Source of the DNA: Streptomyces sp. NBC_01283
GTDB taxonomy: Bacteria > Actinomycetota > Actinomycetes > Streptomycetales > Streptomycetaceae
Assembly (NCBI RefSeq): GCF_041435335.1
Contig: NZ_CP108430.1
Coordinates: 6,175,001 to 6,239,000 of the forward strand
DNA length: 64,000 nucleotides
Reading direction: 5' to 3'
The position numbers and the translations under genes are program-made. Shown piece by piece: positions 16,144 to 28,380 of this stretch; the stretch's first letter is position 1; each line of letters opens with the position of its first letter. The notes beneath the pieces are model-generated. The model had not been told where the DNA came from, searched no databases, and was given only the letters and a program-made list of their open reading frames with translations.

Positions 16144-17418
16144 TCACCTGAGAGTCACCGTGACCGGCAGCTCCTTGATGCCGTTCACGAAGTTCGACCG
16201 GACCCGCCGCACCTCGCCGGTCACCCTGACATCGGCGAGCCGCGGCAGCAGCTCCTCGAACATGATCCGCATCTCCAGGCGGGCCAGGGAGTTGCCCAGG
16301 CAGAAGTGCGGGCTGCCCTTGCCGAAGGTGACGTGGTCGATGTTCTCGCGCGTCACGTCGAAGCGGTACGGGTCCGGGAAGACGTCGGCGTCACGGTTGC
16401 CCGAGGCGAACCACAGCACCACCTTGTCGCCCTCCCTGATCAGTTTGCCGCCCAGCTCGACGTCACGGGTCGCCGTCCGCCGGAAGTGGTAGACGGGCGA
16501 GGCCCAGCGCAGGCACTCCTCGACGCCGCCCGGGATGAGCGAGGGGTCGGCGGTGAGCTTGGCGTGCTCCGCCGGGTGGTCGATCAGCGCGAGCATGGAG
16601 TGCGAGATGGCGTGCCGCGTCGTCTCGTTGCCCGCGACGACGAGCAGCAGGAAGTAGTTGTCGAAGTCGGTGGGGGAGAGCGGGACACCGTCCTTGGGTG
16701 AGTTGTTCACCAGCGTGCTCACCAGATCCGTGCCGTCGCCGCCCCGCCGTTTCGCCGCCAGCTTCCGCCCGTACTCGAAGACTTCGAGTGCGGCGGGGGA
16801 GCGGAAGGGCAGATTGCGGTACTGCTCGCTCTCCGCGCTCCCCAGAAGCACGTCGGCGTAATCAGGATCCGTGTTGCCGATGATGCGGTTGCCCCAGTCG
16901 ATGAGCTGCTGGGTGTCCTCCTCCGGCACGTCGAGCATCCGCGCGAGGACATTGATCGGGAAGTCGGCGGAGACCTCCTTCACGAAGTCGAACGAGCCCT
17001 TGGGGAGCGCCGCGTCGAGGGTGCGGGCCGTCAGGCCGCGCAGGAACGTCTCGTACGTGGCGACCGCGCGCGGCGTGAACTGCTTCTGCAGGATCAGCCG
17101 CATCGCGCGGTGCCGCATGCCGTCGGTCTCCAGAAGGGAACGACGCAACGCGATGTAGTCCTCCTCGACCTCTTCGAGGTTGGTGAACCGCATCGAGGTG
17201 AAGGTGTCCGGGTCGCGGTCCACGCGCACGATGTCCTCGTGCCGGGTGACCGCCCAGAAGCCGGAGTTGGGCGCGGGTTCGGGCTGCCAGTGGACGGGGT
17301 CCTCCCGGCGCAGCACGTCGAACATCCGCCAGGGCAGGGCGCCGTCGGTGAACTTGTCGTTGTCGGCGAGGTCGACGTCGGACAGGGCCAGGGGTGGCGG
17401 CTCCGTGACCGTACTCAT
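16144..17418 (-). CDS. Cytochrome P450 (CYP124/125-like bacterial class)
   Basis: A 424-residue soluble heme monooxygenase. It has the I-helix oxygen-activation motif VVAGNETTRHAISH, the K-helix ExxR in EECLRW, and the heme-cysteine loop FGKGSPHFCLGNSLARLE. The overall style (METD GMRHRAMRLILQKQFTPRA and ASPVYHFRRTATRDVELGG) resembles CYP124/125/142-like enzymes that hydroxylate terminal carbons of lipids, terpenes or steroids, but the substrate cannot be read from sequence. The ATG at 17418 follows GGAGT. It lies 101 bp downstream of the glutamine-synthetase-like gene on the same strand and probably shares its operator. A ferredoxin and reductase at 26950-28380 are its likely electron donors. 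Confidence 0.9.
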   Translation of the reverse strand: MSTVTEPPPLALSDVDLADNDKFTDGALPWRMFDVLRREDPVHWQPEPAPNSGFWAVTRHEDIVRVDRDPDTFTSMRFTNLEEVEEDYIALRRSLLETDGMRHRAMRLILQKQFTPRAVATYETFLRGLTARTLDAALPKGSFDFVKEVSADFPINVLARMLDVPEEDTQQLIDWGNRIIGNTDPDYADVLLGSAESEQYRNLPFRSPAALEVFEYGRKLAAKRRGGDGTDLVSTLVNNSPKDGVPLSPTDFDNYFLLLVVAGNETTRHAISHSMLALIDHPAEHAKLTADPSLIPGGVEECLRWASPVYHFRRTATRDVELGGKLIREGDKVVLWFASGNRDADVFPDPYRFDVTRENIDHVTFGKGSPHFCLGNSLARLEMRIMFEELLPRLADVRVTGEVRRVRSNFVNGIKELPVTVTLR

Positions 17419-17519
17419 GGACGTACTCCTTCGGATCTCGGTTCGGGTGTCGCGGTCGGACGATGTCGGCTGAGGCCATCCGCGGCCATCCGAGGTCGTC
17501 CAGAACCTTCCCTCCGGGA

Positions 17520-18916: not shown

Positions 18917-18938
18917 TATCGTTTGAGACCAAACGATA
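18917..18938. promoter_or_regulatory. Island operator 1 (perfect), upstream of the GS-like gene
   Basis: TATCGTTTG-AGAC-CAAACGATA: perfect 9-bp arms with a 4-bp centre. This is the best of five related sites in the island and defines the consensus TATCGTTTG-N4-CAAACGATA. Confidence 0.85.
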
Positions 18939-19076
18939 GAAACCCCCGGGGGTCCGCGCAAGCCCCTTCGGGGGGATCGGGGGGTAACTGGACGCGACCT
19001 GCGGGGCGTTGCCCCACGCGGGGGTCCCTGTATCGGCGGACAACGGCACCCCGTGGCGCTCAAACCGGCGGAGGCA

Positions 19077-19098
19077 TATCGTACGGATCCAAACGACG
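19077..19098. promoter_or_regulatory. Island operator 2, upstream of the acetoacetate-decarboxylase-like gene
   Basis: TATCGTACG-GATC-CAAACGACG has the same register as operator 1, with two mismatches in each arm. It lies 18 bp before the ATG at 19116, with the SD GAAGGAG immediately following it. Confidence 0.7.
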
Positions 19099-19115
19099 AG
19101 CGAAGGAGTCTGGCC

Positions 19116-19907
19116 ATGGCCCGAGTTCAGGGATTCTTTCCGCCCAAGTCCGCCACGGGCCGCTCCTCGATCATCCCGTCACCGCCCTGGCACTACTCGG
19201 GCGACCTGCTCACCGTCGAGTACCGCACCGACCCCGCCCGCGTCCGCGAACTCCTCCCCGCGCCCCTCGATCTGGCTGCCGACGACCCCGGCGCCGTCGC
19301 CCTCATCTGGGCCGACTGGCAGTCCTGCGGGGACTCCAGGGAGGAGCTGCTCGACCCGGTGCGGTCCCAGTACAAGGAGTGCTTCGCCGTCGTGCGCTGC
19401 GAGTACCGTGGCCGTACCTACTCGCGCTGCGTCTACATCTGGGTCGACAAGGACTTCGCCATCGCCCGCGGCAACCACCAGGGCTACCCGAAGAAGCTCG
19501 GCTCGATCCATCTCACGCGCCCGCACCCCTTCGGTCCCGCGCCCCGCATAGAGGGGGGCGCCACCTTCGGTGCGACGCTCGCCGCCGCCGACCGGCGCCT
19601 CGCCCAGGCCGTCGTGACCCTGCGCGAACCCTCCGAGTCGAACGGATTCGTCAACGCCCACCCCATGGCCCACCACCGCCAGCTCCCCTCCATAGAGGGG
19701 AAAGGGATGGCGCTCGATGAGTTGATCGCATCCGGTGCGGCTTCCTTCGAGGGGGGTCGGGCCTGGTCGGGTGAGGCGGACCTCGACCTCTTCGACGTGC
19801 CCACCGAAGAGCTGGCCGCGCTGACGATCGAGGAGCCCATCGGCGCGTACTACCGTCAGGTCGGCGTCACTTGGAACGGCGGGACCCTCCTGGAGACGAG
19901 CCTGTGA
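19116..19907 (+). CDS. Acetoacetate decarboxylase family protein
   Basis: A 263-residue member of the ADC fold. The conserved Lys-containing motif HQGYPKKLGSIHL corresponds to the Schiff-base lysine region of acetoacetate decarboxylase, and WHYSGDLLTVEYRTDPARVR, YKECFAVVRCEY and YIWVDKDFAIARGN are family landmarks. Related proteins decarboxylate, hydrate or cyclise keto acids, so the actual reaction is open; a keto-acid step in the ring-cleavage branch would fit. The ATG at 19116 follows GAAGGAG. It is divergent from the GS-like gene, each with its own copy of the island operator. Confidence 0.82.
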   Translation: MARVQGFFPPKSATGRSSIIPSPPWHYSGDLLTVEYRTDPARVRELLPAPLDLAADDPGAVALIWADWQSCGDSREELLDPVRSQYKECFAVVRCEYRGRTYSRCVYIWVDKDFAIARGNHQGYPKKLGSIHLTRPHPFGPAPRIEGGATFGATLAAADRRLAQAVVTLREPSESNGFVNAHPMAHHRQLPSIEGKGMALDELIASGAASFEGGRAWSGEADLDLFDVPTEELAALTIEEPIGAYYRQVGVTWNGGTLLETSL

Positions 19908-19916
19908 ACCGCAGGC

Positions 19917-21410
19917 CTACTGCCCCGCCCCCGTACCGATCCCCGCGTACGTCTCCGGTCGCACCCTCCGCAGCCAAAGCCCCCACACCACCCCCGCCGC
20001 ACCAGTGGCGAGGATCAGGCACGGCAATATCCACCGCAGCGGATTCCCGGGCGAAACCCCCAGCTGCACGCTGAAGTTGGTCAGCGCCAGCCAGAAGAAG
20101 ACGGCGAGGGCGACGCCCGAGAGGAGCGGGGCGGCGAGCCGGTTCCACAGGGGCTCGCTCAGTTCGCGGTGGCGGACGAAGTAGGCGATGACCGAGGCCG
20201 ACGTGGCGAGCAGGAGGAGGATCACGCCGAGGGCGCCGAGATTGGTCAGCCAGGTGAAGACATCCATCACCGGGTCACGCCCCGCCAGCGCGAAGACACC
20301 GATGACGACGACACTGAGGGCGGTCTGGAGCAGGGAACCCCGGTGCGGTGACTTGTGCCGGGGGTGGAGCGCCCCGAGCCCGCGCGGCAGCACACCCTCC
20401 CGGCCCAGCGAACGGACGTACCGGGCAACGGCGTTGTGGAAGGAGAGCAGCGCGGCGAGCAGGCTGGTGATGAGGAAGAGCTGTGCGAAGTCGGAGAAGG
20501 CGGAGTTGAGCCCGCTGCTGCGGTCGCTGAGGAAGAACAGCATCTCCGGGCCCTGCTCCGCCGCGACCTTCGTGGCCTGCCCGGTGCCGGCCCCGCTGAT
20601 CATCGCCCACGCGGTGGCGGCGTAGAAGACACCGATGAGGCCCACGGCGATGTACGTGGCGCGCGCCACCGTGCGGCGCGGATCACGGCACTCCTCGCTG
20701 TAGAGCGCCGCCGACTCGAAGCCCATGTACGCGGCGAACACGCAGCACAGCGCGACCCCGAGCGCGCCGTCCGTCGCGGCGGCCCGCGTGAACGGGGTGG
20801 CGGAGATCCCCTGCGGGGCGTCGGCGAACATCCCGATGTCGAAGACCAGCACGGTGCCGAATTCGAGTACGAGCAGTACGGCGAGCACCTTCACGCCCAG
20901 GTCCACGCGCCGGTAGCCGAGCGCACCCACGACGACCGTGCAGGCGAGGACGAGCGCCCACCACGGGATGTCGGCGCCGGTCTTGGATTCGATGAACTGC
21001 GAGGTCGTCGCCCCGAAGAGCCCCGCGATACCGATCTGCATCGCGTTGTACGCGAGCAGCGCCACGAAGGCCGCACCGACACCGGCGGTACGCCCGAGCC
21101 CCTGCGCGGTGTACGCGTAGAACGCCCCCGCACCCGTGATGCGGCGGCTCATCGCCGCGTATCCCGCACTGAAGAGCGCGAGGACGACGCCGACGAGGAG
21201 GTAGAGCAGGGGTATGCCGAGGATCCCGGTGACGCCGAGGGACTGCGGTATGCCGCCCGCGGCCACGGTGAGCGGGGCCGATGCCGCCACGACGGCGAAG
21301 ACGATGCCGGTGACGCCGATACGGCGCTCGGGCGCGAGGGCGGGTGCGGAGGCGGGGGGAGGCGGCGGTGCGGGAGCGGGCATGGGCGTGCCGGGGTGAT
21401 CGATGGTCAT
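19917..21410 (-). CDS. APC family amino acid/amine permease
   Basis: A 497-residue transporter with about 12 helices. Characteristic stretches are GVTGIVFAVVAASAPLTVAA, MSRRITGAGAFYAYTAQGLG, CCVFAAYMGFESAALYSEEC and SFHNAVARYVRSLGREGVLP, as in the APC permeases that accompany polyamine or amine catabolism genes. The ATG at 21410 follows GGAGG. Its stop converges with the ADC-like gene with only 9 bp between. It is divergent from the MarR gene over a region holding island operator 3, so substrate import is likely induced with the rest of the cluster. Confidence 0.9.
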   Translation of the reverse strand: MTIDHPGTPMPAPAPPPPPASAPALAPERRIGVTGIVFAVVAASAPLTVAAGGIPQSLGVTGILGIPLLYLLVGVVLALFSAGYAAMSRRITGAGAFYAYTAQGLGRTAGVGAAFVALLAYNAMQIGIAGLFGATTSQFIESKTGADIPWWALVLACTVVVGALGYRRVDLGVKVLAVLLVLEFGTVLVFDIGMFADAPQGISATPFTRAAATDGALGVALCCVFAAYMGFESAALYSEECRDPRRTVARATYIAVGLIGVFYAATAWAMISGAGTGQATKVAAEQGPEMLFFLSDRSSGLNSAFSDFAQLFLITSLLAALLSFHNAVARYVRSLGREGVLPRGLGALHPRHKSPHRGSLLQTALSVVVIGVFALAGRDPVMDVFTWLTNLGALGVILLLLATSASVIAYFVRHRELSEPLWNRLAAPLLSGVALAVFFWLALTNFSVQLGVSPGNPLRWILPCLILATGAAGVVWGLWLRRVRPETYAGIGTGAGQ

Positions 21411-21495
21411 GCCGGGCCTCCGGGGAGGGGAGGAGAGGAGAGGAGAGGGAGGGGAGAGGGGTGGGAAGAGAAACGCGTATCCGCTGGATGCGCGT

Positions 21496-21517
21496 TATCG
21501 TTTGAACCCGTACGAAA
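21496..21517. promoter_or_regulatory. Island operator 3, between the permease and marR
   Basis: TATCGTTTG-AACC-CGTACGAAA: the left arm is perfect and the right arm is degenerate. It lies 86 bp upstream of the permease ATG and 108 bp upstream of the MarR GTG. A polypurine tract (21421-21476) separates it from the permease. The site could mediate MarR autoregulation. Confidence 0.65.
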
Positions 21518-21624
21518 TTCGAGTGGCGCTGATGGTACGGACGCGCATACGCCCCGGCAAGAGGTCTTGGGAGACTGGAGGCGTGCAGGCGCCACCGGCA
21601 CCACAGGGACGAGGAGATACGGAC

Positions 21625-22224
21625 GTGACGGGCTACCGCTCCATCCGCGAGACCGAGAAGGCGGTCCGGGCCAAGCTCGGCGGCACCCCCCTCAAGTACG
21701 AGCAGATGGCCGCCGTCTCGAACATCTACCGCGCGGCTTCGGCCGTCCGGCAGCACTTCGAGAACTCCGTGCTGCGCGGGGCCGAGCTGACGTGGACGTC
21801 GTTCGTTGTCCTGTACGTGGTCTGGATCTGGGGGGAGATGGAGACGCGGTACGTCGCCGAGGAGGCGGGCATCTCCAAGGGCACGCTGACCGGGGTCGCC
21901 CGCACCCTCGCGGGGCGGGGCCTGCTGGAACGGCGCGGCCACCCCGGCGACGGGCGGCTCGCGCTGCTGCGGCTCACGGAGGAGGGGGAGCGGCTGATGG
22001 AGAAGGTGTTCCCCGCCTTCAACGCGGAGGAGGCGTTCGTCGCCGACGGGCTGACGGACGAGGAGTGCAGGACCCTGGCGGATCTGCTGCGGAAGATCGT
22101 GGTGCAGACGGAGGAGAAGGGGGAGGAGCGAAGGCTGGAACTCCTCGACGGAGCGGAGCCGGCTCCTCGCCGGAGCGGCAGGCGGGCCAAGGGGCCGCTG
22201 GGCGAGGGTCTTGAGCAGCGTTGA
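21625..22224 (+). CDS. MarR family transcriptional regulator (candidate master regulator of the island)
   Basis: A 199-residue MarR protein. The winged-helix core is LTWTSFVVLYVVWIWGEMET, VAEEAGISKGTLTGVARTLA and the wing RRGHPGDGRLALLRLTEEGE, flanked by dimerisation helices. The N-terminal extension (TGYRSIRETEKAVRAKLGG) and C-terminal basic tail (PRRSGRRAKG) are longer than the minimal family. The GTG at 21625 follows GAGGAG with 8-bp spacing; upstream in-frame codons lie in the operator region. Its central position among five identical-register operators makes it the leading candidate to bind them, with an amine or aromatic intermediate as inducer. Confidence 0.88.
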   Translation: MTGYRSIRETEKAVRAKLGGTPLKYEQMAAVSNIYRAASAVRQHFENSVLRGAELTWTSFVVLYVVWIWGEMETRYVAEEAGISKGTLTGVARTLAGRGLLERRGHPGDGRLALLRLTEEGERLMEKVFPAFNAEEAFVADGLTDEECRTLADLLRKIVVQTEEKGEERRLELLDGAEPAPRRSGRRAKGPLGEGLEQR

Positions 22225-22341
22225 TCACGGGCTCCGCCCGGCGTTGACCACTGGCTTCGCCCGGCTTTGCGCGCACGGCGGTTGACCACCGGCTCCGCCC
22301 GGCGTTGACCACCGGCTCCGCTCGGCTTTGCGCGCACGGCG
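22220..22341. repeat. Higher-order tandem repeat (23 + 23 + 15 bp) downstream of marR
   Basis: Two 61-bp composite units lie at 22220-22280 and 22281-22341. Each consists of two 23-bp units of the type GTTGACCACCGGCTCCGCC plus CGGC, followed by a 15-bp TTTGCGCGCACGGCG. Further degraded GGTCACCGGCTCCG copies run to about 22510. The first unit overlaps the last codons of marR. No gene is seen from 22225 to 22554. Confidence 0.85.
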
Positions 22342-22380
22342 GCAGGTCACCGGCTCCGTCCCGCTCCGGGCGTCGGAAGC

Positions 22381-22424
22381 TCACCGGCTGCGCCGAGTTC
22401 GTCCTCAAGCGCCGGACGGGCTGG
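22381..22424 (-). repeat. 44-bp dispersed intergenic element, copy A
   Basis: Read on the minus strand it contains GTCCGGCGCTTGAGGACGAA and then CTCGGCGCAGCCGGTGA. It matches copy B at 28361-28404 in the opposite orientation with only scattered substitutions. From memory, sequences of this GCTTGAGGACGAACTCGGC type recur in many Streptomyces intergenic regions. Confidence 0.75.
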
Positions 22425-22554
22425 GGTGGGTGGCCCCCCCCGGGCCCCGCCCGGCGTTGCACGGCGGCAGGTCACCGGCTCCGCCCCGCCCCGCCCGCCG
22501 CAAGGTCACCAGCCCGCCAAGTCCCGTCTGTCCTTCAGCCTCAGACCGGCCGAG

Positions 22555-23361
22555 TTACTCCCGCTGCGCCGCATGCACCAGCGCCCCGAACAGCCTCTGC
22601 TGCGCCACGTCCGAGCCAGCGGTGTCCTCCGGATGCCACTGAACAGCCGCGAACCAACCCTCCCCATACGGGAGTTCCAGTGCCTCCACCGTCCCGTCCG
22701 CCGCCCGGCCCGTAGCGACGAGCCCGCGTCCCAGCGCCTCCACGCACTGATGGTGGAAGCAGGAAGCCTCCACCTTCTCGGCGCCCATGGCCCGGGCCAC
22801 CACCGAACCGGAAGTCATCCGCACCGGATGCACCACGTGCCGGTGCTCCGACTCCGGCCCGCCCATGTCCTGCCGCAGTGAACCGCCCAGCGCGACGTTC
22901 ACCACCTGCAGCCCCCGGCAGACGGCCAGCAGAGGCAGGCCGCAGGCCACCGCGCACTCCGCGAGCGCGAGGTCGAACGCATCCTGGGCGTCATCCACGT
23001 CGTATACGGAACCGTGCACCTCGCCCCCGGCGCTCGCGTCCTCGTACCGCCACGGCGCCACATCCCCGCCCCCCGGCAGCAGCAGCCCGTCGCACCGGGC
23101 CAGTCTCGCCGCCGCCTCGCCGGGCGGGCCGGGCAGCATCATGAACGGCTCACCGCCCGCGCGGAACACCGCCTCCGCCAACGCCCGCGCCGTCACAACG
23201 GCTTCGTACCGAAGTGCCGACGTCGACGCCGCGTACCGCTGCGGCAGAGCGATCAGCGGGCGGCGGCCCCCTGAGTGGCCTCCCGGGTGGCTCCCCGGGA
23301 GGCCCCCCGAGCGGCCCCCCGCACGGTTCCCCCCGCCGGGAGGCGTCAAAGCTGGATCCAC
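22555..23361 (-). CDS. Class I glutamine amidotransferase/peptidase C26 (PuuD-like gamma-glutamyl hydrolase)
   Basis: A roughly 268-residue gamma-glutamyl hydrolase candidate. The nucleophile elbow is LAVCRGLQVVNVALGGSL, and the catalytic His-Glu pair is in VQWHPEDTA. LLLPGGGDVAPWRYEDAS and HRHVVHPVRM match the PuuD family that removes glutamate from gamma-glutamyl-GABA. It would release the processed amine product from its gamma-glutamyl carrier. The start is unclear: the GTG at 23361 gives a Gly/Pro-rich leader before LIALPQRY and overlaps the stop of a decayed aldehyde dehydrogenase remnant. Island operator 4 lies 76 bp upstream. Confidence 0.85.
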   Translation of the reverse strand: MDPALTPPGGGNRAGGRSGGLPGSHPGGHSGGRRPLIALPQRYAASTSALRYEAVVTARALAEAVFRAGGEPFMMLPGPPGEAAARLARCDGLLLPGGGDVAPWRYEDASAGGEVHGSVYDVDDAQDAFDLALAECAVACGLPLLAVCRGLQVVNVALGGSLRQDMGGPESEHRHVVHPVRMTSGSVVARAMGAEKVEASCFHHQCVEALGRGLVATGRAADGTVEALELPYGEGWFAAVQWHPEDTAGSDVAQQRLFGALVHAAQRE

Positions 23362-23426
23362 GTCGTCTTCAGCTCCGTGTACTTCTCCATCGCGTGCACC
23401 GACTTGTCCCACCCGCTGCGATACTC
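23346..23426 (-). pseudogene. C-terminal remnant of a PuuC-like aldehyde dehydrogenase
   Basis: The reverse strand reads EYRSGWDKSVHAMEKYTELK then TTWIQL and a TGA at 23348-23346. This is the canonical C-terminus of gamma-glutamyl-aminobutyraldehyde dehydrogenases (GxDKSxHAxxKYTELKTxWI). Nothing further upstream matches the family: the island operator begins 11 bp away, and no start codon or body of the enzyme is present. An aldehyde dehydrogenase gene has been deleted down to about 25 codons, leaving the amidotransferase next to the operator. Confidence 0.8.
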
Positions 23427-23436
23427 GGTGTGCGGT

Positions 23437-23458
23437 ATTCGTTTGAGCCCAAACAATA
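23437..23458. promoter_or_regulatory. Island operator 4, upstream of the amidotransferase
   Basis: ATTCGTTTG-AGCC-CAAACAATA matches the operator consensus in register, with CGTTTG and CAAAC intact. It is 54 bp from operator 5; the two serve the divergent amidotransferase and hpaE promoters. Confidence 0.75.
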
Positions 23459-23511
23459 GCCGAACAGGGCTGCCCTATCGAGGGGTTGACCGGTCGCCAC
23501 GCCGCTCCTAA

Positions 23512-23533
23512 TGTTGTTTGGGTTCAAACGAAC
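23512..23533. promoter_or_regulatory. Island operator 5, upstream of hpaE
   Basis: TGTTGTTTG-GGTT-CAAACGAAC has core arms GTTTG and CAAAC(G). It ends 1 bp before the SD GGAGGA and 11 bp before the hpaE ATG, so an occupied site would block the hpa transcript directly. Confidence 0.75.
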
Positions 23534-23544
23534 TGGAGGACCTC

Positions 23545-25098
23545 ATGGCTCCCCCCGCCCCCGAGGCACCGGAGAACTCCTCGCACACCGCGACCGTCGC
23601 CGGTGTCCCCGTCGACACCCGGCACTGGATCGGCGGGCGGCGCGTCGCCTCCGCGTCCGGCGCCACCTTCACCGATGACTCGCCACTCGACGGCACCCCG
23701 CTCGCCGAGATCGCCCGCGGCGGAGCCGAAGAGGCGCGGGCAGCCGTGGCCGCGGCCCGCGAGGCCTTTCCCGGCTGGGCCGCCACCCCGCCCACCGAAC
23801 GCGCCCGGCTCCTGCACGCCGTCGCCGACGGGGTCGAGGCCCGCACCGAGGACCTCGCAGCCGTCGAGACCGCCGACAACGGCGCGCTCCTGCGCTCCCA
23901 CCGCCGCGGTGTCATGCCCCGCGTCGCCCACAACCTCCGCTACTTCGCCGACCGCCTGCTCGCCCTCGCCCACGACGACTTCGAGACCCGGGGGCACACG
24001 AACCACGTGAGCTGGGACCCGGCAGGACCGGCCGTCCTCATCACGCCGTGGAACGCCCCGCTGATGCTGGCCAGCTGGAAGACCGGGCCCGCGCTCGCCG
24101 CCGGGAGCACCGTCGTCCTCAAGCCCTCCGAGTGGACCCCGCTGACCGCGTCGCTCTTCGCGGACATCGCCCACGAGGCGGGCCTCCCGGCCGGGGTGTT
24201 CAACGTGGTGCAGGGGTACGGGGCGGAGGCCGGGGCGCCGCTCGTCGCCGATCCCGGCGTGCGCCGCATCAGCTTCACCGGGTCCGTTCCCACCGCGCGG
24301 CGGATCGCTGCGACCGCGGCCGAACGCCTCGTGCCGTGCAGCTTCGAACTGGGCGGCAAATCCCCGCTGCTCGTCTTCGCCGACGCCGATCCGGAGCTCG
24401 CCGCCGACCTCGCCGTAGAGCAGTTCGACAATGCCGGGCAGGTCTGTCTGGCCGCCACTCGCATCCTGGTCGAGGAGTCCGCCCGGGACGCCTTCCTCGG
24501 GCACATTCTTGACCGGGTAACGAAGTTGACCCAGGGAGATCCGCGCGACGAGGCAACCGACGTCGGGCCCAACATCCACCCCCGGCACGTCGAGCGCGTC
24601 GACGGATTCGTCCGGCGCGCCCTGGACGCGGGCGCGAAGGCCGTCATCGGCGGCGGCCCCAACACCGCACTCGGCGGCAACTACTACCTCCCCACCCTCC
24701 TCACCGACGTCGACCAGGACTCCGAGATCGTCCAGGAAGAGGTCTTCGGACCCGTCCTCACCCTCCAGACCTTCCCCGACGGCGACGAGGACGAGGCCGT
24801 GCGCCTCGCCAACGGCACCCGCTTCGGCCTCGCCGCGACCCTCGCCACCGGCGACCGCGAGCGTGCCGCCCGGGTCTCCGCACGGCTCGTCGCCGGCACG
24901 GTCTGGGTCAACTGCTTCTTCGTGCGCGACCTCTCCGCACCCTTCGGCGGCTCCCGCGACTCGGGGATCGGGCGCGAGGGCGGCGACTGGTCCTTCGACT
25001 TCTACTGCGACCTGAAGAACACCGTGACCGCGCCAATGGGGCCTCCCCTGCTCGAGCGGAGCCGAGAGCTTGGGGAAGGACGGGCCCGCCATGGGTGA
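23545..25098 (+). CDS. hpaE: Aldehyde dehydrogenase, 5-carboxymethyl-2-hydroxymuconate semialdehyde dehydrogenase-like
   Basis: A 517-residue NAD-dependent aldehyde dehydrogenase. It has the Rossmann and catalytic elements PWNAPLMLASWKTGPALAAG, VLKPSEWTPLTA, FTGSVPTARRIAATAAE, the general-base Glu in FELGGKSPLLVF, the nucleophile Cys in FDNAGQVCLAATR, and EEVFGPVLTLQTF. Next to an HpaD-type dioxygenase it most likely oxidises the ring-cleavage semialdehyde of homoprotocatechuate (HpaE role). The ATG at 23545 follows GGAGGA. It leads a five-gene unit ending with the ferredoxin reductase and overlaps hpaD by 8 bp. Confidence 0.88.
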   Translation: MAPPAPEAPENSSHTATVAGVPVDTRHWIGGRRVASASGATFTDDSPLDGTPLAEIARGGAEEARAAVAAAREAFPGWAATPPTERARLLHAVADGVEARTEDLAAVETADNGALLRSHRRGVMPRVAHNLRYFADRLLALAHDDFETRGHTNHVSWDPAGPAVLITPWNAPLMLASWKTGPALAAGSTVVLKPSEWTPLTASLFADIAHEAGLPAGVFNVVQGYGAEAGAPLVADPGVRRISFTGSVPTARRIAATAAERLVPCSFELGGKSPLLVFADADPELAADLAVEQFDNAGQVCLAATRILVEESARDAFLGHILDRVTKLTQGDPRDEATDVGPNIHPRHVERVDGFVRRALDAGAKAVIGGGPNTALGGNYYLPTLLTDVDQDSEIVQEEVFGPVLTLQTFPDGDEDEAVRLANGTRFGLAATLATGDRERAARVSARLVAGTVWVNCFFVRDLSAPFGGSRDSGIGREGGDWSFDFYCDLKNTVTAPMGPPLLERSRELGEGRARHG

Positions 25099-26014
25099 GA
25101 TCGTCGGGGCGGGCCTCCTCGCCCACGTGCCCACCATCGTGCTCCCCGAAGAGTCCCGCAAAGAGCTCAACGAAGGCCGCGAGATCAGCCTCGTCCCCGG
25201 ACTGCGACGGCTGCGCGAAGAGGTCTTCGAGACCCTCGACCACGACACCGTCGTCGTCCTCGACTCGCACTGGGCCACCACCGTCGAGTTCGTCGTCTCC
25301 GCGCACGCGCGCCGCGCCGGGCTCTTCACCTCCGAGGAGCTGCCGCGCGGGATGTGCCGGATGCCGTACGACTACCCCGGTGACCCCGAACTGGCGGCCT
25401 CCATAAGCGAGTTCGACGAGCGGCACGGGACGTGGATCACGCCGATCGACGACCCGTACCTGCCGGTCCACTACGCCACGATCAACCTCTGGAAGTACCT
25501 GGGTGAAGGCCTCCCCGACAAGAAGTGGCTCTCGATCGGCGTCTGCCAGACCGGCGACACCGAGGACCATCTCCGCCTCGGCCGCGCACTCGCCGACGGC
25601 ATCGCGGCGCTGCCCGACCGCAAGGTCCTCCTCATCGCGTCCGGCGCGCTCTCGCATTCCTTCTGGCCGCTGCGGCAACTGCGCGCCCACGAGTCGAGCG
25701 AACCGTCCCACATCCGTACGCCCGAGGCGCGGGCCGCCGACGAGCAGTGCATCGAACGCCTCGCACGCGGCGACCACGCCGAAGTCCTGCGCACGATGCC
25801 CGAGTTTTTGACCCACAAGCCCGAGGCGCGCTTCGGCCACTACCTGATGATGATCGGTGCTCTCGGAGAAGAGCGGTGCTCCGCGGCCGGTCGCGCCTTC
25901 AGCGACTACGAGAACTCGGTGGGCACCGGACAGATGCACCTGTGGTTCGACCGCCCCGCCGAAGGCTGGACCGGCGCCCCCGACCAGACCCGGAGTGAGG
26001 TCTCCCTCGCATGA
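25091..26014 (+). CDS. hpaD: Homoprotocatechuate (3,4-dihydroxyphenylacetate) 2,3-dioxygenase, class III extradiol
   Basis: A 307-residue LigB-superfamily extradiol dioxygenase using Fe(II). The N-terminal GEIVGAGLLAHVPTIVLPEE supplies the first iron-ligand histidine, and VVVLDSHWATTVEFVVSAH the second. LPVHYATINLWKYLGEGLPD and LLIASGALSHSFWPL are further family landmarks. The sequence resembles the class III HpaD/HpcB enzymes that open the ring of 3,4-dihydroxyphenylacetate between C2 and C3. It overlaps hpaE by 8 bp and hpaG by 4 bp (ATGA), so the three enzymes are translationally coupled. Confidence 0.9.
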   Translation: MGEIVGAGLLAHVPTIVLPEESRKELNEGREISLVPGLRRLREEVFETLDHDTVVVLDSHWATTVEFVVSAHARRAGLFTSEELPRGMCRMPYDYPGDPELAASISEFDERHGTWITPIDDPYLPVHYATINLWKYLGEGLPDKKWLSIGVCQTGDTEDHLRLGRALADGIAALPDRKVLLIASGALSHSFWPLRQLRAHESSEPSHIRTPEARAADEQCIERLARGDHAEVLRTMPEFLTHKPEARFGHYLMMIGALGEERCSAAGRAFSDYENSVGTGQMHLWFDRPAEGWTGAPDQTRSEVSLA

Positions 26015-26901
26015 CGCCCACGACGCCCACGACTACTTCGACCCGTAAGGCGACCACCGTCGAGTACCGCCGCGTCCTCCTCGAAGGCGCCGCAGTCCAG
26101 GTCGTGCGCGAAGGGGACGAGCTGGTCGCCGCCGACGGCCGCCGCGTGAAGACCGCCGAGGCCCACCACCTGCCGCCCGTACGCCCCTCCAAGGTGATCG
26201 CCGTCCACCTCAACCACCGCAGCCGGGTGGAGGAGTTCGGCGTCGGGCTGCCGCCCGCACCCACCTACTTCCACAAGCCGGTCTCGGCGCTGAACGCGCA
26301 CGGCGGTGCCGTCGTCCGACCCGAGCGCTGCAAGTACCTCAACTACGAGGGCGAGATCGGCATCGTCATCGGCCGCACCTGCCGCAACATCGCCCCGGCC
26401 GACGCGGACACGTACATCGCGGGCTACACCGTCGCCAACGACTACGGCCTGCACGACTTCCGCGACACCGACGCCGGTTCGATGCTCCGGGTCAAGGGCT
26501 CCGACACGCTCTGCCCGCTGGGCCCGGGCCTCGTCACCGGGTGGGACTTCCACTCCAAGTACCTGCGGACGTACGTCAACGGCGAGCTCGTACAGGACGG
26601 TTCGACGGACGAGATGGAGTGGGACATGCGCTATCTGGTCTCCGACATCGCCCGCACGATCACCATGGAGCCGGGTGACGTGATCCTGTCCGGCACCCCC
26701 GCCAACTCCCGGCCCGTCCGGCCGGGAGACGTCGTCGAGGTCGAGGCCGAGGGCCTCGGACGCCTCACCAACCACATCGTCACCGGCCCGACGGCCGTCC
26801 GCTCCGACGTCGGCGCTCAGCCCACGGAGTCCGAGGAGGTCGTCTCGACGGCCTTCGGGGGCGACTGGGAGTTCCGCGGAATCCGCCCCCCACGCCGCTG
26901 A
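26011..26901 (+). CDS. hpaG: Fumarylacetoacetate hydrolase family protein, HpaG-like isomerase/decarboxylase
   Basis: A 296-residue FAH-fold enzyme. The metal-binding ExE is in NYEGEIGIVIGRTC, with the downstream acidic ligand in ANDYGLHDFRDTD; VKGSDTLCPLGPGLVT and EPGDVILSGTPANSRPV are family signatures. HpaG enzymes decarboxylate and isomerise the C8 diacid formed after ring cleavage and oxidation. Only one FAH domain is present, whereas enterobacterial HpaG has two halves. It is the third gene of the hpa operon and follows hpaD through an ATGA overlap. The hydratase, aldolase and CHM isomerase of the classical pathway are not in the window. Confidence 0.85.
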   Translation: MTPTTPTTTSTRKATTVEYRRVLLEGAAVQVVREGDELVAADGRRVKTAEAHHLPPVRPSKVIAVHLNHRSRVEEFGVGLPPAPTYFHKPVSALNAHGGAVVRPERCKYLNYEGEIGIVIGRTCRNIAPADADTYIAGYTVANDYGLHDFRDTDAGSMLRVKGSDTLCPLGPGLVTGWDFHSKYLRTYVNGELVQDGSTDEMEWDMRYLVSDIARTITMEPGDVILSGTPANSRPVRPGDVVEVEAEGLGRLTNHIVTGPTAVRSDVGAQPTESEEVVSTAFGGDWEFRGIRPPRR

Positions 26902-26949: not shown

Positions 26950-27141
26950 ATGCTCAAGGTCACCGTCGACCTGGACGTCTGCCAGGACCACGGGCAGTGC
27001 GTCTTCGCGGCGCCGGAGGTCTTCACGCTCGACGAGGACGGCCACCTCGCGTACGTCGAATCGCCCGACGAAGCCCTGCGCGCCGACGCGGAGGACGCCG
27101 CCGACGTCTGCCCGCTGCAGGCCATCCGGGTCGAGGGCTGA
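26950..27141 (+). CDS. P450-type [3Fe-4S] ferredoxin
   Basis: A 63-residue ferredoxin. The cluster motif CQDHGQC ... CPLQAI matches the CxxHxxC-(x)n-CP pattern typical of actinobacterial [3Fe-4S] or [4Fe-4S] ferredoxins that donate electrons to P450s. VFAAPEVFTLDEDGHLAYVE is the conserved middle. It is 48 bp after hpaG and 6 bp before the ferredoxin reductase, so reductase and ferredoxin form a P450 redox chain, probably for the P450 at 16144-17418. Confidence 0.93.
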   Translation: MLKVTVDLDVCQDHGQCVFAAPEVFTLDEDGHLAYVESPDEALRADAEDAADVCPLQAIRVEG

Positions 27142-27147
27142 CCCGCC

Positions 27148-28380
27148 GTGGCCTCCCCGGGGGGAATCGCCGTCGTCGGCGCGTCGCTCGGCGGGCTGCG
27201 GGCGGCCGAGCAGCTGCGGGCGGCGGGGTGGGAAAGGGCGATCACGGTGTACGGGGACGAGCCCCATCTCCCGTACAACCGCCCCCCGTTGTCCAAGGAG
27301 GTCCTCGCGGGGGAGGCACCCGCCGCCACCACGGCGCTGCGCCATCGCCCCAGCATCGCCGACGTCGAATGGCGGCTCGGTACGGCGGTCGAATCCGCCG
27401 ACCTGGCCGCGCGCACACTCACGCTGGCCGATGGTTCGGTCCATGCGTACGAGGGTCTGGTGGCCGCGACGGGGGTGCGGCCACGCAGGCTTCCTCTGCC
27501 CGGGGGTCCGCCACGGCATGTCGTACGGACACTGGAGGACGCGGCGGCACTGCGTGCCGAACTTGCCGAGGGCGTACGGGTGTTGGTGATCGGGTCGGGC
27601 TTCATCGGCTGCGAGGTGGCGGCCACGGCGCGCAGGGCGGGGTGCGAGGTGACGGTCGTCGCGCCGGAGACCGAGCCGATGATGCTGGCGGTGGGGGAGA
27701 GGCTCGGGCGGGTGCTGCGACGACGGCACGAGGCGCGCGGGGTGCGGTTCCGAATGGGGCGGCTGGTCTCCCAACACGCCGCTGATTACGTGGCGTTGGA
27801 CGACGGGAGCGAGTGCGGGGCCGATGTGGTGGTCGAGGCGGTCGGTTCGCTGCCGAACGTGGAGTGGCTGGGGGCGAGTGCGGGGGTCGACCTGACGGAC
27901 GGCATCCTCTGCGACGCGCAGCTACGGATCGGGGGGCTTGCGCACGCGGTCGCCGTGGGGGATGTGGCGCGCTTCCCGAACCCCCGGTACGGGGCGCTCG
28001 CGCGGCGGGTCGAGCACTGGTCGATGCCGGCGGACTGCGCGAAGCATGCGGCGCGGGTGCTGGTGGCGGGGCTGTCGGGGGACGGGGCCGCGTCACCGCA
28101 CGACGCGACGCCGTTCGCGCCGCTGCCGTCGTTCTGGAGCGATCAGGTCGATGTGCGGGTGCAGTCGTTCGGGCTTCCGGGGGTGGGGGACGGAGTGCGG
28201 CTGCTGGGGGGCGATCCGGACTCCGAGGACGGGGACGTGGTGTACGGCTACTACCTGGGGGAGCGGATGATCGGGGTCGTCGCGCTGGGCGGGGCCAGGG
28301 CCGTGGGGATGGCGGGGCGTTATCGGGCGGAGCTGATGGCGTTGCCGGAGGCGGAACCCTCCAGCCGGTCCGGCGTCTGA
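27148..28380 (+). CDS. NAD(P)H:ferredoxin reductase (FAD-dependent, BenA/ThcD type)
   Basis: A 410-residue pyridine-nucleotide-disulfide oxidoreductase-fold reductase: FAD motif IAVVGASLGGLRAAEQLRAA, the signature PYNRPPLSKEVLAGE, NAD motif VLVIGSGFIGCEVAATARRA, AVAVGDVARFPNP and a C-terminal reductase domain (FWSDQVDVRVQSFGLPGVG). Such proteins reduce the ferredoxins of P450s or ring oxygenases. The GTG start at 27148 is 6 bp from the ferredoxin stop. The last codons (SSRSGV and the TGA) are encoded by copy B of the dispersed 44-bp element, so the natural C-terminus has been replaced or trimmed. Confidence 0.92.
   Translation: MASPGGIAVVGASLGGLRAAEQLRAAGWERAITVYGDEPHLPYNRPPLSKEVLAGEAPAATTALRHRPSIADVEWRLGTAVESADLAARTLTLADGSVHAYEGLVAATGVRPRRLPLPGGPPRHVVRTLEDAAALRAELAEGVRVLVIGSGFIGCEVAATARRAGCEVTVVAPETEPMMLAVGERLGRVLRRRHEARGVRFRMGRLVSQHAADYVALDDGSECGADVVVEAVGSLPNVEWLGASAGVDLTDGILCDAQLRIGGLAHAVAVGDVARFPNPRYGALARRVEHWSMPADCAKHAARVLVAGLSGDGAASPHDATPFAPLPSFWSDQVDVRVQSFGLPGVGDGVRLLGGDPDSEDGDVVYGYYLGERMIGVVALGGARAVGMAGRYRAELMALPEAEPSSRSGV

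What the first reader, a model, noticed from the sequence alone, without database searches (positions are those of the whole stretch)
18917..23533. Five copies of one inverted-repeat operator define an amine/aromatic catabolic regulon
Seen directly: sites with the same architecture (TATCGTTTG-N4-CAAACGATA or close variants) lie at 18917, 19077, 21496, 23437 and 23512, each in front of a start codon of the GS-like, ADC-like, permease/MarR, amidotransferase and hpaE genes. They share a 4-bp centre and the CGTTTG/CAAACG cores. A MarR gene sits among them. This links otherwise heterogeneous genes into one response and predicts a single repressor and a single inducer.
Basis: partly seen in the sequence, partly recalled or inferred. 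Interest (0 to 1): 0.85.

Follow-up and report, generated by a model that had tools for sequence, protein, structure and literature searches.

The report
MarR-controlled aromatic amine degradation switch
Five copies of one DNA switch in a Streptomyces genome most likely let a single repressor protein turn on, all at once, a set of genes that looks built to break down an aromatic amine.

Summary
The five palindromes exist at the stated places and are not chance: the 22-bp form occurs only here in the 9.59-Mb genome (3 sites with up to 3 mismatches; control 0). Comparative evidence makes them operators of the adjacent MarR. In 246 Streptomyces genomes MarR is in 51 of 53 with the cluster's ADC-like gene and 13 of 193 without. 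Four cluster-bearing genomes without a MarR orthologue have no good site; two distant ones with sites but no MarR nearby have MarR elsewhere. In 56 relatives' loci 128 sites appear, none inside cluster genes. At 83 of 143 enzyme-gene sites a TTG -35 stands where the operator's upstream arm is the -10 box: repression by occlusion. Corrections: the centre is RNNY, not N4; site 23437 belongs to an aldehyde dehydrogenase gene deleted in this strain. The regulon joins gamma-glutamylation, a P450 and homoprotocatechuate-type ring cleavage; the genome has no HpaH or HpaI match, a gap an ADC-fold enzyme may fill (hypothesis). Binding and inducer are untested.

The parts
18917..18938 (-). Operator 1, perfect palindrome; first six bases (18938-18933, minus strand) are the -10 TATCGT of the GS-like/P450 promoter
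18956..18961 (-). -35 TTGCGC of the GS-like promoter, 17-bp spacer
   Evidence: same architecture in relatives
19077..19098 (+). Operator 2 (one degenerate half, CGTACG), in front of the ADC-like gene; the same degenerate half stands before ADC in other genera
21496..21517 (.). Operator 3 (one degenerate half, CGTACG), between permease and marR; probable autoregulatory site
23437..23458 (-). Operator 4; -10 TATTGT inside it, TCGATA 17 bp further up; promoter of the lost ALDH2 gene and now of the C26 hydrolase
23512..23533 (+). Operator 5, overlaps the hpaE-like promoter
23486..23514 (+). hpaE-like promoter TTGACC-N17-TAATGT
21625..22224 (+). MarR-family regulator, proposed repressor of all five operators
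   Evidence: PF01047 E 6e-11; HpaR model 46 bits, under its cut-off of 121; conserved recognition helix
17523..18881 (-). Glutamine-synthetase-like protein, probable gamma-glutamyl ligase
   Evidence: PF00120; GS-III, GlnA and GGputSyn models all under cut-off
16144..17421 (-). Cytochrome P450 (start uncertain), downstream of the GS-like gene
19116..19907 (+). Acetoacetate-decarboxylase-fold enzyme, MppR-like; proposed hydratase-aldolase
19917..21410 (-). APC-type amino acid/amine permease
22555..23412 (-). C26 gamma-glutamyl hydrolase; longest ORF given, homology begins near 23268, so the true start is probably near there
23342..23415 (-). 3' remnant of a deleted PuuC-like aldehyde dehydrogenase gene (ALDH2); about 1.4 kb missing relative to L047
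   Evidence: 90.5% over 74 bp; intact gene L047:10478-12088
23545..25098 (+). HpaE-like aldehyde dehydrogenase
   Evidence: TIGR02299 501 bits, cut-off 638
25091..26014 (+). HpaD-like LigB extradiol dioxygenase
26011..26901 (+). HpaG/HpcE-like FAH-family isomerase/decarboxylase
26950..27138 (+). Small ferredoxin ORF, by homology to an annotated ferredoxin of a relative (no NCBIfam model hit it)
27148..28380 (+). FAD-dependent ferredoxin reductase

Best explanation
The five palindromes are operators of the MarR-family protein encoded at 21625-22224. As a dimer it binds TAnCGTTTGR-NN-YCAAACGnTA and, without inducer, represses the GS/P450, ADC, permease and marR, ALDH2/C26, and hpaE-ligB-FAH-ferredoxin-reductase units. 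At many enzyme promoters the operator's upstream arm is itself the -10 hexamer, about 17 bp below a TTG-type -35, so bound repressor excludes RNA polymerase. A pathway compound, most likely the aromatic amine or a homoprotocatechuate-type intermediate, releases it and opens all units together. Shown: positions, conservation, promoter overlap, association with MarR. Inferred: binding, repression, inducer, substrate.
For: Own-genome uniqueness. MarR in 51 of 53 genomes with the cluster's ADC-like gene against 13 of 193 without; motif anywhere in the genome in 35 of 53 against 13 of 193 (Fisher p 7e-38 and 1e-18, uncorrected for shared ancestry). MarR-less cluster genomes: G147 and G158 have no motif with up to 3 mismatches genome-wide and none of 12/18 or better in the fetched stretches, only generic MarR matches; G431 and G555 have no MarR match at E 1e-5 and no site of 14/18 in their stretches. 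Conversely G288 and G285 have sites, no MarR in the stretch, and a MarR orthologue (49%, 56%) elsewhere. In 56 ADC-bearing loci, none sharing an exact 300-mer: 128 sites of 14/18 or better in 49 loci, 0 inside cluster genes that cover 51% of bases; each other spacer from 0 to 10 gives 0-10 sites, the reversed motif 0. A site of 11/18 or better upstream of marR in 121 of 136 distinct orthologues, control 4 of 136. In 20 further loci, 19 of them outside the genus, 29 four-spacer sites in 16 loci, at most 2 sites for any other spacer from 0 to 8. TTG at -26 to -22 in 83 of 143 enzyme-gene sites, 2-16 in ten other windows of that width; upstream arm T 118, A 103 of 134, downstream T 61, A 60 of 134. 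Window promoters fit at GS, hpaE and ALDH2/C26.
Against: No binding data. The S. canus plasmid copy (L115) has two sites (14 and 13 of 18) but no MarR in the 31 kb fetched, and a TetR gene; its chromosome was not searchable. Of 48 motif-positive genomes 13 have only generic MarR matches; most look like background (reversed control: 10 of 246 genomes), but G081 has two sites beside GS and P450 fragments. 18 of 53 ADC-positive genomes have no match at up to 3 mismatches; 7 of 56 loci have no site of 14/18, and L152 and L153 have cluster and MarR but no site even at 13/18. In G193 the counted motif lies away from cluster genes (L196). Thirteen genomes have MarR without the ADC gene (two only about 33% identical). 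Many relatives carry a TetR gene in the cluster that could co-regulate. Only 1 of 16 ADC sites has the TTG, and the permease/MarR site shows no clear promoter.
Confidence: 0.85

Rival explanations
1. The sites are bound by a TetR-family regulator that sits inside the cluster in many relatives, not by MarR.
For: TetR lies in many clusters, including the S. canus plasmid copy with sites but no MarR in the stretch.
Against: A TetR query finds no match at E 1e-5 in the window or in 17 other stretches that include L047, two Embleya and three Actinomadura loci with MarR and sites. G147 has TetR and the cluster but no MarR orthologue and no site. MarR carries a site upstream in 121 of 136 orthologues.
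Confidence: 0.06
2. MarR is an activator, or a dual regulator, at these sites.
For: HpaR of Yersinia represses hpa but activates T6SS4 from a site at -241 (PMC7180172, passages seen).
Against: Many operators overlap the -10 box rather than lying upstream of -35, where a bound dimer would block polymerase.
Confidence: 0.05
3. Only the stronger sites (18917, 23437, 23512) are functional; 19077 and 21496 are decayed or chance.
For: Each has two mismatches in the 16-bp core, a class near background genome-wide.
Against: The same degenerate half (CGTACG) recurs at the same position before ADC and between permease and marR in other species, at ADC also in other genera, which is conservation of a weak site rather than decay.
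Confidence: 0.15
4. The palindromes are transcription terminators or mRNA hairpins rather than operators.
For: They are inverted repeats between genes.
Against: Many sit at promoters with a -35 at fixed distance, keep a spacer of four over all others tested, and vary with MarR presence. No terminator scan was run.
Confidence: 0.02

Closest known systems
HpaR and the hpa-meta operon (E. coli W, Yersinia pseudotuberculosis; PMC7180172, passages seen)
   Same: MarR-family repressor; palindrome with 4-bp spacer; one operator centred at -8; controls HpaE/D/G-type enzymes
   Different: HpaR operator is TTAA-N4-TTAA; the window protein scores 46 bits on the HpaR model, cut-off 121; hpa has HpaH and HpaI, which have no match in this genome; here GS-like, C26, P450 and ADC genes are in the regulon
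Aniline/1-naphthylamine gamma-glutamylation (PMC11335346, passages seen)
   Same: GS-like ligase plus glutamine-amidotransferase-like enzyme feeding an oxygenase and a catechol pathway
   Different: The aniline system uses a Rieske dioxygenase; here a P450 with ferredoxin and reductase. The GS chain 8wwu (recalled to be NpaA1) is not the closest GS in PDB
Streptomyces ethanolamine cluster with GlnA4 and EpuRI (PMC6529630, passages seen)
   Same: GS-like, aldehyde dehydrogenase, permease, amidotransferase and a local repressor
   Different: No P450, ring-cleavage or ADC gene is named in the passages seen; the word MarR does not occur in the main text
SCO3205 and its operators (PMC3737563, passages seen)
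   Same: Streptomycete MarR with pseudopalindromic operators upstream of its own gene
   Different: Consensus TTnAAnnnTCAA, not met by TTTGRNNYCAAA
PcaV (PDB 4fht/4g9y)
   Same: Best PDB sequence match of the MarR (42 bits); aromatic-catabolism regulator (recalled)
   Different: Remote similarity; ligand site not compared

Membership tests
MarR family | MarR winged-helix domain | tested here: met
   PF01047 42.5 bits, cut-off 24.6
MarR family | Palindromic operator upstream of its own gene | tested here: met
   21496 in the window; 121 of 136 orthologues at 11/18 or better, control 4 of 136
MarR family | Ligand-relieved DNA binding | not testable with these tools
   needs purified protein
HpaR equivalog | Score above curated cut-off of TIGR02337 | tested here: not met
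   46.2 bits against 121.2
HpaR equivalog | TTAA-N4-TTAA operator | tested here: not met
   CGTTTGRNNYCAAACG; HpaR site from PMC7180172
Homoprotocatechuate meta pathway | HpaD-, HpaE-, HpaG-type enzymes | tested here: inconclusive
   Best (HpaE, HpaD) or second-best (HpaG) NCBIfam model, all under their cut-offs: HpaE 501/638, HpaD 122/316, HpaG C-terminal 203/276 bits
Homoprotocatechuate meta pathway | HpaH hydratase and HpaI aldolase | tested here: not met
   no match at E 1e-3 in the own genome
Puu-type gamma-glutamyl amine pathway | Ligase, aldehyde dehydrogenase, C26 hydrolase and permease together | tested here: inconclusive
   Together in a number of relatives; ALDH2 is a remnant in the window; the ligase scores under the GGputSyn cut-off, 261/650; no PuuB-like oxidase was looked for
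Aniline dioxygenase system | Rieske oxygenase in the cluster | not tested
   no Rieske search was run; none of the ten window proteins scanned with Pfam matched one

The most novel reading that the evidence does not exclude
A widespread, undescribed actinomycete pathway: an aromatic amine of the tyramine/dopamine type is gamma-glutamylated, oxidised by a P450, and its homoprotocatechuate-type ring is meta-cleaved. An ADC-fold Schiff-base enzyme replaces the HpaH/HpaI hydratase-aldolase pair. One MarR repressor controls it in trans, in some genomes also at unlinked loci (ABC-type uptake and amidohydrolase operons), through operators that double as -10 boxes.
Probability: 0.3. Interest if true: 0.7.

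Novelty: new variant of a known kind. Interest (0 to 1): 0.52.

Why it matters
It assigns a defined operator and a repressor to a catabolic module found, by its ADC-like gene, in 53 of 246 Streptomyces genomes sampled and in actinomycetes of other families with genomes of 1.3-5.1 Mb. The operator can be used to find unlinked pathway genes in any genome, a direct way to the unknown substrate. It also makes a concrete enzymology question testable: whether an ADC-fold enzyme finishes a meta-cleavage pathway where HpaH and HpaI are missing.

Tried and rejected
Helical phasing of paired operators: divergent pairs are spaced 103-108 bp at GS (23 of 31) and 74-76 bp at ALDH2/HpaE (7 of 12), which suggested looping. 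On distinct spacings the Rayleigh test at 10.5 bp gave p about 0.04 and 0.34. I do not claim it; conserved back-to-back promoters explain it as well.

Own-genome search with the 16-bp core at 2 mismatches does not separate signal from background. One search stopped on a wrong frame for the C26 gene and was redone. Ten literature searches listed no paper on this regulon that I recognised; they cover only open-licence PMC papers, and I saw listings, plus passages of four papers; no paper was read whole. The ADC-like enzyme's proposed activity rests on recalled knowledge of its relatives; two searches found no useful paper.

TetR, activator and terminator readings were weighed and put among the rivals. 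The whole genome was not available as a file, so no genome-wide weight-matrix scan was done. No structure prediction, fold search or protein-database search was run.

Hand counts: the 2x2 tables, the ten control genomes, and the 28 genomes with neither HpaH nor HpaI match were counted by eye from the listings; the MarR/motif table was typed. Rows dropped: L159 and L160 as duplicates (one search found no remaining pair sharing an exact 300-mer); L159, where L050 and its duplicate L160 both remain among the 31; the own locus and five duplicates. The 143 sites include 20 Lentzea-type GS rows and 2 sites counted for two genes.
Full report
Observation. The five inverted repeats are present at 18917, 19077, 21496, 23437 and 23512. 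Scored against TATCGTTTG-N4-CAAACGATA they match 18, 14, 15, 15 and 14 of 18 fixed positions, and all five have a purine-NN-pyrimidine centre. In the window the core with up to two mismatches occurs exactly five times against 1.19 expected, and none of 100 shuffles reached five. In the own genome (9,594,106 bases) the 22-bp form with up to three mismatches occurs three times, all in this cluster, with none for the reversed control. The core at two mismatches is close to background (73 against 57), so the weaker sites need comparative support.

Gene setting. Minus strand: P450, GS-like ligase, permease, C26 hydrolase. Plus strand: ADC-like enzyme, MarR, then HpaE-, HpaD- and HpaG-like enzymes, a small ferredoxin and its reductase. 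The three Hpa-like enzymes have hpa models as best or second-best NCBIfam match but stay under the cut-offs. PDB matches agree: best for the dioxygenase is a 3,4-dihydroxyphenylacetate 2,3-dioxygenase, for the FAH protein the 4-hydroxyphenylacetate isomerase/decarboxylase. The MarR is a PF01047 protein, remote from HpaR (46 bits, cut-off 121) and from PcaV.

Site 23437. Behind it, on the minus strand, lies a 74-bp stretch 90.5% identical to the 3' end of an intact aldehyde dehydrogenase gene of S. longisporoflavus (L047), a PuuC-like protein. In L047 the operator stands in front of the whole gene; here about 1.4 kb is missing between operator and tail. Whether the pathway still works in this strain is open.

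Link to MarR. One draw of 246 Streptomyces genomes was searched for MarR (64 positive at E 1e-20, two of them only about 33% identical), for the ADC-like gene as cluster marker (53 positive at E 1e-60) and for the 22-bp motif with up to three mismatches (48 positive, reversed control 10). MarR is in 51 of 53 ADC-positive and 13 of 193 ADC-negative genomes; the motif, anywhere in the genome, in 35 of 53 and 13 of 193 (Fisher tests; shared ancestry inflates them). The 13 motif-positive, MarR-negative genomes have only generic MarR matches (best E in each 1.9e-14 to 9.6e-8). Against the reading: one of them, G081, has two sites beside GS and P450 fragments on a 5-kb contig; G122 has a site without cluster genes nearby; and in the ADC-positive G193 the counted site is likewise away from cluster genes.

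Natural exceptions. The two ADC-positive genomes without MarR, G147 and G158, carry ADC, HpaE, LigB, FAH, ALDH2 and C26 genes at 63-81% identity, and G147 also GS. Neither has the motif genome-wide, their fetched stretches (L199, L200) have no site even at 12 of 18, and a relaxed search finds only generic MarR proteins. G147 also has the TetR gene seen in many relatives, so TetR alone does not keep the motif. Conversely the TetR query finds nothing in the window, L047, two Embleya and three Actinomadura stretches that have sites and MarR. Among 20 further loci, four have no MarR in the stretch: the two with sites of 14/18 (G288, G285) have a MarR orthologue elsewhere in the genome (49% and 56%), and the two without such a site (G431, G555) have no MarR match at E 1e-5 (G431 has one site of 13/18). 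The S. canus plasmid copy has sites of 14 and 13 of 18 and TetR but no MarR in the stretch fetched; its chromosome could not be searched.

Site statistics. In 56 ADC-bearing loci (1,075 kb), none sharing an exact 300-mer, there are 128 sites of 14/18 or better in 49 loci. Spacers of 0-3 and 5-10 give 0 to 10 sites each and the reversed motif none. None of the 128 lies inside a cluster gene, though these genes cover 51% of the bases. Seven loci have no such site; two of them, L152 and L153, have cluster and MarR but nothing even at 13/18. Among 136 distinct MarR orthologues 121 have a site of 11/18 or better within about 280 bp upstream, control 4. In the 20 further loci (19 outside the genus), 16 have four-spacer sites of 14/18 (29 sites) and 16 have MarR in the stretch, 14 both; other spacers from 0 to 8 give at most 2 sites. 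The motif there drifts toward ATCGTTCGG-NN-CCGAACGAT (64 sites of 14/18 in 16 loci, reversed 1), with MarR at 42-58% identity outside the genus. The recognition helix SKGTLTGVARTL is nearly invariant among the 136 orthologues.

Promoter geometry. With each site turned toward its gene, a TTG stands 22 to 26 bases before the first operator base in 83 of 143 enzyme-gene sites, against 2 to 16 in ten other windows of the same width; the sharpest peak is -23, 41 sites, mean 2.4 per offset. At -23 the operator's first six bases, TATCGT or TATTGT, fall at the -10 with a 17-bp spacer. By gene the fit is GS 33 of 56, ferredoxin 19 of 19, HpaE 10 of 13, ALDH2 14 of 30, LLM 6 of 9, ADC only 1 of 16, where a GTGACA stands instead in several. 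The upstream outer arm keeps T in 118 and A in 103 of 134 sites, the downstream arm T in 61 and A in 60, as expected if the outer arm serves polymerase rather than repressor. In the window the fit holds for GS (TTGCGC-17-TATCGT), ALDH2/C26 (TCGATA-17-TATTGT) and hpaE (TTGACC-17-TAATGT), weakly for ADC, and not for the permease/marR site. Repression by occlusion is the natural reading.

Extent of the regulon. In relatives the motif also precedes a second permease, ALDH2, an F420-type oxidoreductase, and an operon with a periplasmic binding protein, a BPD_transp_2 permease and an amidohydrolase, divergent from a LuxR/GAF gene. In G189 and G007 such sites lie 1.8 Mb and 0.28 Mb from the nearest listed MarR, in G222 on another contig, so the regulator would act in trans.

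Pathway. A tyrosine-decarboxylase-like gene lies near some clusters or marR genes (L103, L116, L152, L153, L154, L179, and many Lentzea loci), which points to an arylethylamine, but this is inference. HpaH and HpaI have no match in the own genome. Of 73 cluster-bearing genomes 40 have some HpaH-family match (1 over cut-off) and 19 some HpaI-family match (0 over cut-off); 28 have neither (counted by eye). The ADC-like protein keeps a PK motif aligned with MppR, which I take from recalled knowledge to hold the Schiff-base lysine. That it finishes the pathway is a hypothesis.

Comparison. HpaR of Yersinia also uses a palindrome with a 4-bp spacer and an operator centred at -8 (PMC7180172, passages), so the way of working is known. 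The operator sequence, the target set and the phylogenetic home differ. I file it as a new variant of a MarR-repressed aromatic catabolic regulon, confidence 0.85 for the repressor-operator pairing and about 0.5 for an arylamine/homoprotocatechuate-type substrate.

Noticed in passing
window 23342-23415: 3' remnant of a PuuC-like aldehyde dehydrogenase gene whose promoter and operator remain; intact in L047.
   Followed up: yes
window 19116-19907: ADC-fold enzyme in a meta-cleavage regulon of a genome with no HpaH or HpaI match; candidate replacement.
   Followed up: partly
L115 (S. canus linear plasmid): A copy of the cluster sits on a plasmid typed as mobilizable, near integrase and transposase-family genes, with TetR but no MarR in the stretch and one-carbon (THF) genes nearby.
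   Followed up: no
L126, L163, L185: Operon with the same operator, unlinked to marR in some genomes: binding protein, BPD_transp_2 permease, amidohydrolase; divergent LuxR/GAF regulator in L126.
   Followed up: partly
L062-L086 (mostly Lentzea): marR orthologue beside GS-like and, in most, PLP-decarboxylase-like genes, with a diverged, conserved palindrome TAACGTTGAGNNNCAAACGCTA between GS and marR in most of them.
   Followed up: partly
window 16144-17421: P450 whose best PDB sequence matches by far are two entries named CYP125MRCA (412 and 407 bits; next 274).
   Followed up: no
window 22224-22540: Stretch behind marR made of near-repeats of a CCGGCTCCGCCCGGCGTTGACCAC-like unit, seen by eye.
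   Followed up: no
own genome, many places: A dispersed identical element CGTTTGAGGACGAACT recurs at many places and makes up part of the 2-mismatch background of the core pattern.
   Followed up: no
GS/ADC and ALDH2/HpaE intergenic regions of relatives: Operator pairs often keep 103-108 bp or 74-76 bp spacing, near whole helical turns; statistics too weak to claim.
   Followed up: partly
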